Position numbers and translations under genes: made by a program
The notes under the pieces: model-generated
Databases searched by the model: none
Told to the model about the DNA's origin: nothing
The model's input: the letters and a program-made list of their open reading frames with translations, nothing else
Origin: Phycisphaeraceae bacterium
Lineage (GTDB): Bacteria; Planctomycetota; Phycisphaerae; Phycisphaerales; UBA1924
Reading direction: 5' to 3'
NCBI GenBank assembly: GCA_019454185.1
Contig: CP075368.1
Span: 1,736,001-1,800,000 of the forward strand
Length of the DNA: 64,000 nucleotides
Shown: piece after piece, positions 37,300 through 41,394 of the stretch
How positions within the stretch are numbered: the stretch's first letter is position 1
Layout: the number at the start of each line of letters is the position of its first letter

Positions 37300-40200
37300 A
37301 TGACCGATCACGCACCGAATCCGTCTTCCAGCACCGATCCGAAGCCCGGAGCGGCTGCGCCCTCGAACGACCTCCCGAAGACCTACAAGCCCACCGAGCA
37401 CGAGGATCGTATCCGTGCACACTGGGAGTCCACCGGCGCGTTCCACGCTGACCCTTCGCGCGTTCTGAACGGGGAGGCGGAGCCGTATGCGATCGTGATT
37501 CCGCCCCCGAACGTCACCGCCGCGCTGCACCTTGGCCACGCGCTCAACAACACGCTGCAGGATGTGCTGGTGCGGGCCCACCGGATGAAGGGGTTCGAGA
37601 CGCTGTGGATGCCGGGGACGGACCACGCGGGGATCGCCACGCAGAGCGTGGTCGAAAAGCGCGTGCTGAAGGAAGAGGGAAGACGCCGCGCGGACTTCAA
37701 GGGCGAAGAAGGCCGGCGCGAGTTCGTCGGAAAGATCCAGGCGTTCAAGGACGAGTACGAGAAGGTCATCACGGATCAGCTCAAGCGGATGGGGTGCTCG
37801 TGCGACTGGGAGCGCCAGCGGTTCACGATGGATGAGGTGTGTGCCGCGGCGGTGCGCGAGGCGTTCTTCCAGCTGTTCAAGGATGGGCTGATCTATCGCG
37901 GCAAGCGCCTGGTGAACTGGGATCCGGTGCTGCAGACCGCGGTGGCGGATGATGAGTGCTTCGATCAGGAGATCGATGGAGCGTTCTATTACTTGCGGTA
38001 TCCGCTGGTGCGTGACAAGGGTGACGGAAAGGGAATCACGTGGGGTGAGCTCAAGCACCTCGGATTCCCGGCTGAGCACATCAAGGGCGCGGCGAATGAG
38101 CGAGCTTGGATTACGGTCGCGACGACCAGGCCGGAGACGTACCTCGGCGATACCGCGGTGGCGGTGAGCCCGAAGGATCCTCGCGCGGCAGTGCTCAAGG
38201 ACCTCTGCGTGGAGCTGCCCATCATCAAGCGGGTGGTGCCGATCCTTGTGGACTCGTACGTGGTGCTGCCGGAGTCGCTTGCGACGAGCGAAGAAGAGAA
38301 GAACGACCCGAAGGCGAAGTTCGCCACGGGGTTCCTGAAAGTGACGCCCGCGCACGATGAGAACGACTACCAGCTCTACCAGCGGCACAAGGAGCGGGTG
38401 GACTCGCTGATGAGAGTCGGTGACGGTCTCTGCAACATGATGGAGTCGGATGGCCGCGTGACAAGCGAGAAATTGTGGAGCGAATCGAAGGACGGCGCAA
38501 TGTTTGTGGGTCTCACCATGGCCGATGCGCGAAATCGCGTGGTCGCCGAGTTCAAGCAGCGCGGGCTGCTCGAAGAGGTAAGGCCGTACCGCCACAGCGT
38601 CAAGCACAGCGACCGAAGCAAGGCGATCATCGAGCCGTACCTGAGCGATCAGTGGTACGTGAGGGTGACGGACTCGAAACTGGCCGGTGCTGCGGTGGAC
38701 GCGATGGTGCCGGAACAAAGAGGGGCCTTGGGTGGCACCGCTCTCCAGAGCGGTGGTTCGGCCATCGATAGCTTCAAGTCCCGCCCCCTTGCACCAGCGG
38801 GCTTTGTCGGAATGGACCCTTATCCACCATTTGAGCCCTCTCCCAATGGGCTCATTCGCTCTCTTCGCAACCTGCCACATGTGGAACTCAAGGGTGCCAC
38901 TTACTTTGTGACATGGCGATTGATGACAGGCGCGTTATCTGCTCAGGAACGAACTGCTGTCCTCGAATCAATGAGGCATGGCGAGGGCGAGGCATTCGAT
39001 CTCTTTGCCGCGTGCGTCATGCCCGACCATGTGCACGCGATCATCCGGCCGTTGCAGACCATCGGTGTGGGAGAGTGGGTTTCAGGCGTCAAGAAGTTCA
39101 CCGCTCGCAGAATCAACGAATCAAGAAGAACGAACGGGCATCTGTGGCAGGATGAGCGGTTCGACCACATCGTCCGTGACCGGGGCTGGCTTGGCGACTT
39201 TGTCGAGTACATCCTCCGCAATCCAGTCGAGGACGGTATCTGTGCACGGCCATCCGACTACGCATGGACGTATCTGTCCGCGTCGATTCTCGAATGCATA
39301 TGGAAGCAGAAAGACCAAAGGCACACCGCTCTGGAGAGCGGTGCCACCAAAGACAGAGACACCGGCGACGGCTCGCTGAAGTTCTATCCGGAGCGGTACG
39401 CGAAGACGTACGAGACGTGGCACGAGAACATCAGGGACTGGTGCATCAGCCGCCAGCTTTGGTGGGGGCATCGGATACCGGTTTACTATCTTCATCAGAA
39501 CACTGCACAGGGCGTAGATGTTGGCGTACCTCAATCTTGGGAGATTCAGAACCTGCAGCAAGAGTCTCGAATTGACGATCTTGGATTTCGAGCAGCGAGC
39601 GCATGCGGGGTCGCCTCTGAGATTCATTTCAATAGAGATGGCGTCAACAGCGTTGCTCCCAGCACCGGAAAATCCCTCGGCGAACGCATTTACTTTGGCA
39701 TTGCTTGTGCTCGCACTGAGCGAGCACAAAAGTTTTTGTCGCACATCCAGCGGATAGCGCGGCGAGGCTCGATGGACGAACAGAAGGCCGAATGGGCGGC
39801 ATTCAAGAGCGAGTACGGTGAAGCTGCCTGGCAGAACGCTCGGGAGCTCGCGAGTCAGCTATCGGACGTGACACAAGATCCCGACGTCCTCGACACGTGG
39901 TTCTCGTCCGCCCTGTGGCCTATGAGCACGATGGGGTGGCCGGACGCGGCAGCCGCGGCGAAGGCGACGGGGATCGCAGATTTCCCGCAGATGCTCGACG
40001 CGTTCAACCCGACATCGGTGCTGTGCACGGCGCGGGAGATCATCACCCTGTGGGTCAGCCGCATGGTGATGTTCAATAGGTACCTCAGACCGGAAGGCAC
40101 GAAGGCACACAGGCACGAAGGCACGAAGAAGGAGAGCCCGGAAGGAGGCAAGGGGAAGGGTCCCGTGCCGTTCCGCGACGTCTTCATCCACTCGGTCATC

Positions 40201-41394
40201 CAGGATGGCGAGGGGCGGAAGATGTCCAAGTCGCTCGGTAACGGCGTGGACCCGCTCGACATCATCGAGAGCCACGGCTCCGACGCGATGCGCTTCACGC
40301 TCGTCCAGATGACGACGAGCACGCAGGATGTGCGGATGCCCGTCGAGCGTGACCCCACCAGCGGCAAGAACACCAGCCCGAAGTTCGACCAGGGGCGGAA
40401 CTTCTGCAACAAGCTCTGGAATGCGGCACGGTTCGTGGTCTCCATTCTGGAGAAGGCGGAAGGCACGGAGGCACAAAGGCACGAAGGCACGAAGGAGAGC
40501 GTGAGAGCGGGTGATCTTTCGCTGATCGACAGGTGGATGCTCTCGCGCGTGGCGGCGACAGTGGCTGATATCGATCAGTCGCTCGCGTCGTACCAGTACG
40601 CGCCGTACGCGACCGCGATGTACGACCTCTTGTGGCGTGATTTCTGCGACTGGTATCTGGAAGCGATCAAGCCGACGGTTGCATCCTCCGCGCCGCAGCG
40701 GGCGGTGCTGCGTGCGACGCTGGATGCGATCCTGCGGATGCTGCATCCGATCGCGCCGTACATCACCGAGGCGATCCACGAGCGTGTACGGTCGCTCCCC
40801 CCCACCGCTGCCATCGCGGGACTGGATCTTGTGGGCGAACCCAAGGACGCCGCGCGGCGTGCGAACGCGAAGTGGAACGGGCTGCTCTGCCGCGAGCATT
40901 GGCCGAAGGCGGATGCGGCGCTGCGAGATGCCGAGGCCGAGGCCTCGTTCGAGCGGCTGCGCCAGTTGGTGACGGCCTGCCGCGAGGTGCGGAGCCAGCA
41001 CCAGGTGGCGCCGAAGCGGCGCGTGAAACTGCACGTCCACGCCGATCTGGCGGCAGAGATCACCTCCGCCGCCGGAATGGTCGAAACGCTCGCGGGACTC
41101 GCCGAAGCCGGCGTTTCGAAGCCCACCGGCGCGTCCGTGTCGTTCATGTTCGACTCAAAGGAGTGCTTCCTCAGCGATCTTGCCGATCAGGTGGATGCGG
41201 GCGCGGAGCGCGAGCGTCTGGCGAAGCAGGTGGCCGATCTCGACAAGTCGATCGCGGCGCTCGAGGGACGGCTCGGCAATCCCGGATACGCCGACCGGGC
41301 TCCCAAGCACCTGGTCGATCAGACACGGGACCAACTGGCCAAGGCCATCGCTGATCGCGAGGCGGCGCGGGCGAACCTCGCGAGACTCTCGTGA
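37300..41394 (+). CDS. valS: Valyl-tRNA synthetase carrying in-frame mobile-element and repeat insertions (1364 aa)
   Basis: ValRS charges tRNA-Val in the cytoplasm. All core motifs are present in one frame: HLGH at 77-80, the editing-domain segment TRPETYLGDTAVAV, WWGHRIPVYY at about 720-730, DPDVLDTWFSS at 860-870, KMSKS at 974-978, the anticodon-binding helices, and the C-terminal coiled coil (LAKQVADLDKSIAALEGRL). Typical bacterial ValRS has about 880-950 residues; this has 1364. The surplus is explained by a RAYT element (residues 478-683), an unassigned segment (about 731-858), two octamer-derived peptides (932-944 and 1054-1066) and smaller loops. Each sits where ValRS normally has a loop. 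Whether the product folds and works is unknown. Confidence 0.93.
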   Translation: MTDHAPNPSSSTDPKPGAAAPSNDLPKTYKPTEHEDRIRAHWESTGAFHADPSRVLNGEAEPYAIVIPPPNVTAALHLGHALNNTLQDVLVRAHRMKGFETLWMPGTDHAGIATQSVVEKRVLKEEGRRRADFKGEEGRREFVGKIQAFKDEYEKVITDQLKRMGCSCDWERQRFTMDEVCAAAVREAFFQLFKDGLIYRGKRLVNWDPVLQTAVADDECFDQEIDGAFYYLRYPLVRDKGDGKGITWGELKHLGFPAEHIKGAANERAWITVATTRPETYLGDTAVAVSPKDPRAAVLKDLCVELPIIKRVVPILVDSYVVLPESLATSEEEKNDPKAKFATGFLKVTPAHDENDYQLYQRHKERVDSLMRVGDGLCNMMESDGRVTSEKLWSESKDGAMFVGLTMADARNRVVAEFKQRGLLEEVRPYRHSVKHSDRSKAIIEPYLSDQWYVRVTDSKLAGAAVDAMVPEQRGALGGTALQSGGSAIDSFKSRPLAPAGFVGMDPYPPFEPSPNGLIRSLRNLPHVELKGATYFVTWRLMTGALSAQERTAVLESMRHGEGEAFDLFAACVMPDHVHAIIRPLQTIGVGEWVSGVKKFTARRINESRRTNGHLWQDERFDHIVRDRGWLGDFVEYILRNPVEDGICARPSDYAWTYLSASILECIWKQKDQRHTALESGATKDRDTGDGSLKFYPERYAKTYETWHENIRDWCISRQLWWGHRIPVYYLHQNTAQGVDVGVPQSWEIQNLQQESRIDDLGFRAASACGVASEIHFNRDGVNSVAPSTGKSLGERIYFGIACARTERAQKFLSHIQRIARRGSMDEQKAEWAAFKSEYGEAAWQNARELASQLSDVTQDPDVLDTWFSSALWPMSTMGWPDAAAAAKATGIADFPQMLDAFNPTSVLCTAREIITLWVSRMVMFNRYLRPEGTKAHRHEGTKKESPEGGKGKGPVPFRDVFIHSVIQDGEGRKMSKSLGNGVDPLDIIESHGSDAMRFTLVQMTTSTQDVRMPVERDPTSGKNTSPKFDQGRNFCNKLWNAARFVVSILEKAEGTEAQRHEGTKESVRAGDLSLIDRWMLSRVAATVADIDQSLASYQYAPYATAMYDLLWRDFCDWYLEAIKPTVASSAPQRAVLRATLDAILRMLHPIAPYITEAIHERVRSLPPTAAIAGLDLVGEPKDAARRANAKWNGLLCREHWPKADAALRDAEAEASFERLRQLVTACREVRSQHQVAPKRRVKLHVHADLAAEITSAAGMVETLAGLAEAGVSKPTGASVSFMFDSKECFLSDLADQVDAGAERERLAKQVADLDKSIAALEGRLGNPGYADRAPKHLVDQTRDQLAKAIADREAARANLARLS
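38731..38755 (+). repeat. Left REP hairpin of the RAYT element
   Basis: A GGTGG head is followed by a perfect 9-bp stem, CACCGCTCT (38736-38744) and AGAGCGGTG (38747-38755), with a CC loop. It is translated within valS as GGTALQSG. The same 25 bases occur inverted at 39324-39348. Confidence 0.92.
39324..39348 (-). repeat. Right REP hairpin (inverted copy)
   Basis: This is the exact reverse complement of the left REP: stem CACCGCTCT and AGAGCGGTG with a GG loop, then CCACC. It is translated as HTALESGAT. The pair forms the REP-transposase-inverse-REP arrangement known for RAYT loci. Confidence 0.92.
39490..39870 (+). other. Unassigned insertion segment within valS
   Basis: Between VYY (to residue 730) and QDPDVLDTW (from 859) there are about 128 residues, where E. 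coli ValRS has about 40. The segment (for example NTAQGVDVGVPQSWEIQ and IYFGIACARTERAQKF) has no family I recognise. Its GC is lower than in the rest of valS. It may be a lineage-specific loop or a decayed second insertion. Confidence 0.6.
40093..40128 (+). repeat. GAAGGCAC octamer array inside valS, copy 1
   Basis: Four units (GAAGGCAC, GAAGGCAC, ACAGGCAC, GAAGGCAC) start at codon 932 and are translated as EGTKAHRHEGTKK. They lie in the loop before the segment PFRDVFIHSVIQDGEG that precedes KMSKS. Three octamers equal eight codons, so expansion by threes keeps the frame. Confidence 0.9.
40459..40494 (+). repeat. GAAGGCAC octamer array inside valS, copy 2
   Basis: Four units (GAAGGCAC, GGAGGCAC, AAAGGCAC, GAAGGCAC) start at codon 1054 and are translated as EGTEAQRHEGTKE. 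They lie between the catalytic core (FCNKLWNAARFVVSI) and the anticodon-binding domain (LSLIDRWMLSRV). Confidence 0.9.

What the first reader, a model, noticed from the sequence alone, without database searches (positions are those of the whole stretch)
38731..39348. RAYT element with perfect inverted REPs inserted in frame in valyl-tRNA synthetase
The gene for ValRS keeps one open frame across a complete REP-transposase-inverse-REP unit. The REPs are identical over 25 bp in inverted orientation, each a 9-bp hairpin with a 2-nt loop. The unit is 618 bp, exactly 206 codons, without a stop. The transposase motifs (DHVH, the Tyr in FVEYILRNPV) look intact. RAYTs normally stand alone between genes. 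An essential gene carrying one as an internal domain would make a chimeric ValRS, or would need to tolerate it in the loop before DGSLKFYPERY. This may be a case of a transposase domesticated inside a housekeeping enzyme.
Basis: partly seen in the sequence, partly recalled or inferred. Interest (0 to 1): 0.93.

Follow-up and report, generated by a model that had tools for sequence, protein, structure and literature searches.

The report
Transposase lodged inside essential enzyme genes
The only valyl-tRNA synthetase gene found in this bacterium's genome holds a complete REP transposase in its reading frame, and related transposases sit in the same loop of that gene and in other housekeeping genes of many relatives, so these mobile genes likely live, and are made, as inner parts of enzymes the cell cannot lose.

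Summary
valS (37300-41394, 1364 aa) is open across a 618-bp REP-RAYT-REP unit (38731-39348). The REPs match over 25 of 25 bases in inverted orientation; HUH and Tyr are intact. No second valS was found.

It is not a local accident. In 163 genomes of the family, 69 RAYTs in 59 genomes lie in frame in an identified host gene; two more lie in another family. Hosts of the 71: valS 33, rdgB 19, leuS 16, miaA, an HscA/DnaK-like and a Kbl-like gene. Inverted-repeat arms flank 69 of 71. Elsewhere the same is seen in ileS, purH, recG, thrS and DUF1156 genes (flanks tested separately) and probably in purL, trpE, dnaE, alaS and mutL. The valS loop was entered by at least two RAYT lineages (AU p = 7.8e-5) and, in 17 further genomes, by a different Y1 transposase class.

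Presence is patchy, catalytic residues are kept and RAYT dN/dS is 0.11-0.39; 33 of 71 have no start codon nearby. I read this as a mobile transposase that settles in tolerant loops of essential genes and is made mainly as an inner domain, not as domestication. Translation and activity are untested.

The parts
37300..41394 (+). valS, valine--tRNA ligase with an in-frame internal RAYT; 1364 aa
38731..39348 (+). REP-RAYT-REP unit, 618 bp = codons 478-683, no stop
38731..38755 (+). left REP, hairpin with 5' GGTGG foot
39324..39348 (-). right REP, inverted, identical over 25 of 25 bases
38803..39303 (+). RAYT (Y1 HUH transposase) domain, first row of alignment A1
39028..39036 (+). HVH of the HUH motif
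   Evidence: sequence; conserved in embedded relatives
39208..39210 (+). catalytic Tyr codon (FVEYILRNPV)
   Evidence: sequence; conserved in embedded relatives
38812..38814 (+). the one in-frame ATG between the left REP and the first conserved motif; possible internal start, untested
38731..39480 (+). tract with 1 mismatch (39174) to valS of G003; left edge exactly at the REP, right edge 132 bp past the right REP

Best explanation
The 618-bp unit is a REP-flanked RAYT transposase sitting in frame in a loop of the valyl-tRNA synthetase gene, and it is most likely a mobile lodger that is translated as an extra internal domain of a working ValRS rather than a domesticated part of it. Shown: open frame, paired REPs, intact HUH and Tyr, no second valS found, empty sites in two congeners, recurrence in the same loop and in other housekeeping genes, and conservation of the RAYT at protein level. 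Inferred: (1) insertion by single-strand HUH chemistry at REP hairpins (general knowledge of the RAYT and IS200 families, not tested here); (2) survival only where the insert falls in a loop, in frame, without stops; (3) translation as a fusion, with RAYT and enzyme folding side by side on repeat-coded linkers; (4) the RAYT copies REPs around the genome; (5) retention because an essential gene supplies expression and any out-of-frame deletion or stop in the insert would be lethal; (6) spread by rare jumps to other host genes and by transfer between related species.
For: No second valS in a one-contig genome. Of 76 A1 matches in 163 family genomes, none has a stop inside and 69 lie in identified host genes, in 59 genomes; with G039 and G051 the set is 71. 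Flanks were matched to hosts separately on both sides, except the C side of three at contig ends (L120, L210, L213). Inverted-repeat arms flank 69 of 71; the two misses are at contig ends. Of 73 embedded RAYTs the HUH first His is kept in 73, the second in 72, the Tyr in 71. RAYT dN/dS is 0.11-0.39 in the 12 informative of 15 pairs that I chose. 33 of 71 have no ATG, GTG or TTG in the 30 codons before the first motif; 24 of 24 stand-alone relatives have one. Host labels cluster on the RAYT tree, 32 changes against 86.7 shuffled; the AU test rejects one clade for valS RAYTs, p = 7.8e-5. A different Y1 class sits in the same valS loop in 17 further genomes. G000/G003 RAYT dS is 0.01 against host 0.48-0.64. 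REP matches (up to 3 mismatches): 64 and 51 in the two congeners with the insert, 32 and 10 in those without. The RdgB-RAYT model keeps both folds, with pLDDT under 50 only at the junctions.
Against: No transcript, protein or activity data. The ValRS-RAYT model was poor (pLDDT 63.8, pTM 0.42) and does not show that ValRS folds around the insert; in the RdgB model pTM is 0.60, so the domains' mutual placement is open. The relatives that I saw named are mostly metagenome bins. In G000 an in-frame ATG at 38812 allows separate initiation. Several pairs have dS above 1, so their dN/dS is rough. The valS insert need not be the only source of REPs: G001 lacks it yet has 32 matches, 7 exact, and two weak RAYT-like hits in G000 (2315665, 3096763; under 24 bits) have a 2-mismatch REP about 0.5 kb away, the second also an exact REP about 1.1 kb away. 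Close stand-alone relatives exist in other phyla, so lodging is not obligatory for the whole lineage.
Confidence: 0.8

Rival explanations
1. Domestication: the RAYT domain has become a working part of ValRS, for example in tRNA or nucleic acid binding.
For: RAYT dN/dS 0.11-0.39; lasting association with certain host genes, e.g. the 16 leuS RAYTs form one clade, support 97, when only valS, leuS and rdgB rows are used. A 2021 paper calls RAYTs in general domesticated (PMC8049555, passages).
Against: Two of three congeners lack it; many unrelated hosts carry one; the same valS loop holds at least two RAYT lineages and another Y1 class; repeat pairs and catalytic residues are kept.
Confidence: 0.1
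2. The insert is removed before a working ValRS is made, by RNA or protein splicing or by ribosomal bypass.
For: Insertion at conserved places in essential genes is typical of inteins and introns (general knowledge); the ends are palindromic.
Against: No intein or Hint match in Pfam or NCBIfam; the only Rfam match at E up to 1 is a sub-threshold one outside the insert; none of the 76 family matches has a stop inside, which removal would not require; both folds are kept in the RdgB model. Bypass was not testable.
Confidence: 0.06
3. Assembly chimera or a decaying gene copy.
For: Many relatives are metagenome bins (titles); read mapping was not possible.
Against: One-contig genome and no second valS; the same loop in many independent genomes and protein records.
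Confidence: 0.01

Closest known systems
RAYT / TnpA-REP transposases and REPtrons
   Same: HUH-Y1 transposase flanked by inverted REPs with many dispersed REP copies; profile NF047646; the predicted fold of a relative (RdgB-RAYT) matches the RAYT-REP structure 4ER8 (TMt 0.63).
   Different: Here the gene has no stop of its own and often no start; it lies inside another protein's reading frame, with REPs read as linkers. [quoted passage not shown]
Rickettsia palindromic elements (RPE) and intragenic REPs
   Same: Palindromic repeats inserted in frame in protein-coding genes (PMC3733652 and PMC10969869, passages). Solo REPs also sit in frame in genes of this genome.
   Different: In the passages read those are short repeats without a transposase; here the transposase itself is the in-frame insert.
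Inteins and intron-borne homing endonucleases
   Same: Mobile nuclease genes lodged at fixed places of essential genes, with patchy presence (general knowledge).
   Different: No splicing domain or intron found; the insert most likely stays in the protein.
Class 3 TnpA-Y1 (PMC6006769, table passage)
   Same: A Y1 transposase with a Y...Q motif; a protein of this look occupies the same valS loop in 17 further genomes.
   Different: A different Y1 class with other flanking repeats; assigned to class 3 by motif only.

Membership tests
RAYT (REP-associated tyrosine transposase) | HUH motif and catalytic Tyr in a Y1_Tnp domain | tested here: met
RAYT (REP-associated tyrosine transposase) | flanked by inverted REP hairpins | tested here: met
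RAYT (REP-associated tyrosine transposase) | many dispersed copies of the same REP | tested here: met
   64 matches at up to 3 mismatches (62 places, two being one REP read on both strands), 40 exact; reversed-pattern control 0
RAYT (REP-associated tyrosine transposase) | GTAG tag at the REP foot | tested here: inconclusive
   here GGTGG; several leuS-type relatives have GTAG or GTAC; GTGG variants are reported for O. terrae (PMC3733652, passage)
RAYT (REP-associated tyrosine transposase) | free-standing gene with its own start and stop | tested here: not met
   no own stop; among 71 embedded copies 33 lack any start nearby. I treat this as what makes it a variant, not as excluding the family
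RAYT (REP-associated tyrosine transposase) | cleaves and joins its REP as single-stranded DNA | not testable with these tools
   needs biochemistry
Intein | Hint or splicing domain | tested here: not met
   no such match
Group I or II intron | intron RNA structure | tested here: not met
Rickettsia palindromic element | short non-autonomous palindrome without a transposase | tested here: not met
   the insert encodes a transposase; sequence kinship to RPEs not tested
Domesticated host domain | fixed presence in orthologues | tested here: not met
   absent from G001 and G002

The most novel reading that the evidence does not exclude
A general lifestyle of bacterial mobile DNA not described in the papers I could search: intercalated transposases, start-less and stop-less, that live as internal domains of essential enzymes (aminoacyl-tRNA synthetases, purine enzymes, RdgB, DnaE, RecG, MutL and others), are protected from loss by the host gene's essentiality, and have converged from at least three Y1 lineages on one loop of ValRS.
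Probability: 0.6. Interest if true: 0.92.

Novelty: new variant of a known kind. Interest (0 to 1): 0.87.

Why it matters
How RAYTs persist, when they are described as apparently unable to move themselves (PMC3116915, passage), is an open question. Lodging in frame inside essential genes would give a transposase permanent expression and protection from loss without splicing, a third route beside introns and inteins. It could also explain how palindromic repeats get into protein-coding genes, and it makes a large set of natural enzyme-transposase chimeras testable in the laboratory. It also warns annotators: such genes appear in databases as tRNA ligases, as transposases or under double names.

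Tried and rejected
Rejected: second valS (none found); intein or intron; chimeric assembly (independent genomes). Dropped before counting: RAYT hits in long frames where the RAYT is at or near the C end and I judged the upstream frame non-coding by eye (L121, L122, L124-L129, L131, L133; also L123, L130, L132 not used); five matches that are ordinary or partial RAYTs (L218-L222); L212 (G177; runs of N, host unclear); L215 (contig edge). Inconclusive: the ValRS-RAYT structure; PriA (P0043), where only one host stretch was listed; L298 from an isolate, where the frame joins an HmaB-like start, the RAYT and an HmaC-like part, so it is not counted as a clean case; DrmD-like L317, whose host match lies on one side only. 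L289, L333 and P0059 gave no host name. REP arms are stop-free in six frames in 45 of 69 against 32.9 expected from base shuffles, and the left hairpin centre falls in one codon phase in 28 of 32 valS inserts: weak because the rows are related, not used. rdgB RAYTs as one clade are not rejected (p 0.53). I had seen the larger tree before the AU test; its groups were set by host gene. Ten paper searches showed no report of a RAYT lodged in frame in other genes; subscription papers are not held, and the PMC papers were seen as listings or passages only. The one paper with both RAYT and RecG names RecG only in its reference list.

Full report
Observation. The valS ORF (37300-41394, 1364 aa) is open across a 618-bp unit at 38731-39348. 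The unit starts and ends with the same 25-base REP in inverted orientation and encodes a RAYT (NF047646 81.5 bits against a cut-off of 80 for the insert alone; Y1_Tnp). HUH and Tyr are intact. The window is C1:1736001-1800000 of a one-contig 3.80-Mb genome, estimated 95.3% complete; no second valS was found, the next hit being 28% identical. G003, of the same genus, is a named record: its valS stretch lies within JAPKGU010000089.1, a Phycisphaerales MAG. So this is very likely a Phycisphaerales bacterium.

Close relatives. Of the three other genomes of the genus held, G001 and G002 have a valS loop without the insert; G003 has it. The G000 and G003 inserts differ at one synonymous site. The near-identical tract runs from the first base of the left REP to 132 bp past the right REP (38731-39480, one mismatch), while valS elsewhere is a mosaic of about 40-100% identity per 100 bp, leaving out windows that are mostly gaps. 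A third carrier protein, P0002, has 97% identity in the RAYT against 77% and 89% in the two ValRS parts. I infer that the element or tract moved recently between species.

Extent in the family. A profile of 18 in-frame RAYTs (A1) found 76 matches, none with a stop inside, in 64 of 163 family genomes (at most 21 candidates per genome were scored). I fetched all 76 (the window itself for G000) and compared the parts before and after the RAYT separately with host references. The valS reference was the insert-free G001 gene; the leuS, rdgB and miaA references were carriers (L079, L118, L119), whose own two flanks were then named separately by NCBIfam, as were those of the HscA- and Kbl-like hosts. 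69 of the 76 lie in an identified host gene, in 59 genomes; the rest are five ordinary or partial RAYTs, one unclear (L212) and one at a contig edge (L215). Adding G039 and G051 from another family gives 71: valS 33, rdgB 19, leuS 16, miaA 1, HscA/DnaK-like 1, Kbl-like 1. For three at contig ends (L120, L210, L213) only the N side was matched. In valS the N match ends at reference residues 494-534 and the C match begins at 479-522, one loop; leuS has a main site and a second one (G128, G145). Inverted-repeat arms, mostly REP-like hairpins, lie at the ends of 69 of 71 (score 14-40; shuffled-flank maxima of the same inserts 8-14); the two misses are at contig ends. The arms differ between inserts, even among the three in G028.

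Extent beyond. A search of about 5.8 billion proteins with the RAYT part of the 1364-aa ORF, which by design returns only proteins of about 750-2387 aa, gave 162; in 117 of the 120 listed the RAYT is internal with at least 60 residues on each side. With the two flanks scanned apart, both sides name the same host and adjoin in its profile for ileS (2-592, then 593-853), purH (3-268, 267-510), recG (393-454, 451-786) and thrS (1-263, 257-548); for a DUF1156 gene both sides match with a gap between. purL, trpE, dnaE, alaS and mutL proteins match their host profile in two or more stretches, but the place of the second is not printed. A search with one RdgB chimera gave 3425 proteins among the 8000 best candidates; of the 120 listed 99 have a RAYT, internal in 97. 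JGI already gives some such proteins double names. Among the 80 named loci kept (of 413), both embedded and stand-alone frames occur, the latter in Deltaproteobacteria, Zixibacteria, Isosphaera and others. In the order sample 75 of 400 genomes, and in the phylum sample 70 of 392, have an A1 match, stand-alone ones included; beyond G039 and G051 hosts there were not assigned.

A second transposase in the same loop. ValRS of G005, G044 and G047 lacks a RAYT but holds another Y1 protein there (NHVH or DHVH, Y...QG, PF01797), flanked by a different inverted repeat. A profile of these three found matches in 95 of 400 order genomes, most of them in short frames. Of the 20 loci examined, 17 (frames of 988-1529 aa, the three founders included) have valS on both sides at this loop and three stand alone. 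A strict [ND]HVH pattern is met in 13 of the 17 and the Y...QG pattern in 15. The motif resembles class 3 TnpA-Y1 of PMC6006769 (table passage).

Selection and history. HUH and Tyr are kept in nearly all of 73 embedded RAYTs (G006 has Ser for Tyr, G095 lacks the second His, G127 is cut off). RAYT dN/dS is 0.11-0.39 in the 12 informative of 15 pairs. On a 134-row tree host labels need 32 changes against 86.7 for shuffles, so RAYTs tend to stay with a host gene but have switched; there leuS rows are mixed with dnaE, miaA and kbl rows. With only the 68 valS, leuS and rdgB rows, one clade for valS is rejected (p 7.8e-5), leuS is one clade (support 97) and rdgB is not rejected. At one site RAYT divergence can be far below the host's (G000/G003, G066/G067) or above it (G082/G084).

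Expression. By the way they were found, the embedded RAYTs have no stop of their own. 33 of 71 have no ATG, GTG or TTG within 30 codons before the first conserved motif, against 0 of 24 stand-alone relatives; ATG alone 18 of 71 against 15 of 24, Fisher p 0.002. Many can therefore probably be made only as a fusion (inference). G000 does have one in-frame ATG at 38812.

Structure. The RdgB-RAYT chimera of G015 (L325) models well (pLDDT 88.1, pTM 0.60); pLDDT falls under 50 only at residues 143-154 and 310-316, the two junctions, and Foldseek finds RdgB (TMt up to 0.89) and the RAYT-REP complex 4ER8 (TMt 0.63). The ValRS model is too poor to use.

REPs. Matches at up to 3 mismatches: G000 64 (40 exact; 62 places), G003 51 (30 exact), G001 32 (7), G002 10 (2). 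This is in line with the insert being a source, but four genomes are few, and G001 holds REPs without it. Of six NF047646 hits in G000 only the valS one passes the cut-off; two weak ones have a 2-mismatch REP about 0.5 kb away, one of them also an exact REP about 1.1 kb away, so another element may share this REP. Of 30 exact REP loci examined, nine frames were scanned; solo REPs lie in frame in MetH, a 2-oxoacid dehydrogenase E2, a carboxyltransferase, SucD and ParB, two frames (CysS-like, LysR-like) have the REP before the domain, and two gave no family.

Literature. REPs within genes and RPEs are known (PMC3733652, PMC10969869, passages). RAYTs are described as single-copy genes apparently incapable of self-mobilization (PMC3116915, passage) and as domesticated (PMC8049555, passage). 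I found no report of the transposase itself living in frame inside other genes in the searches named under Tried and rejected.

Verdict. A mobile in-frame lodger is the best reading; fusion translation, enzyme activity and transposition remain to be shown.

Noticed in passing
40094-40129, 40460-40495 and 1276-1319: Runs of an 8-base unit (AAGGCACG) lie at three places, two of them in frame in valS and read as HEGTK-like peptides; 10 overlapping matches against 0.02 expected.
   Followed up: partly
L067 (G003:C254:8354-8378, -): G003 valS carries a further solo REP in frame, in about the loop where G000 has the second AAGGCACG run.
   Followed up: partly
39481-39870: A stretch of valS after WWGHRIPV, about 127 codons, finds no DNA match in the valS genes of G001-G003; its origin is unknown.
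   Followed up: no
L012, L013, L016, L028, L033: Solo REPs of this genome read in frame inside MetH, a 2-oxoacid dehydrogenase E2, a carboxyltransferase, SucD and ParB, in several cases between domains.
   Followed up: partly
L257, L258 (G000:C1:2315665-2315823, 3096763-3096903): Two weak RAYT-like hits each have the same 2-mismatch variant of the REP about 0.5 kb away: possibly a second, related element in two copies.
   Followed up: partly
P0045: An AlaRS of a Verrucomicrobiae MAG matches the RAYT profile in two stretches, so it may hold two RAYTs.
   Followed up: no
L298:3065-5632: In the isolate Desulfoferrobacter suflitae DRH4 one open frame joins an HmaB-like start, a RAYT and an HmaC-like part, possibly a defence locus rearranged around a RAYT.
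   Followed up: no
P0128, P0174: RdgB-RAYT chimeras appear in a eukaryote set (eukprot) and in a Nodularia spumigena record; these may be planctomycete contamination.
   Followed up: no
phylum sample: Weaker RAYT matches (profile positions about 51-152) also lie in frames of 1000-1500 aa in other families of the phylum; hosts not identified.
   Followed up: no
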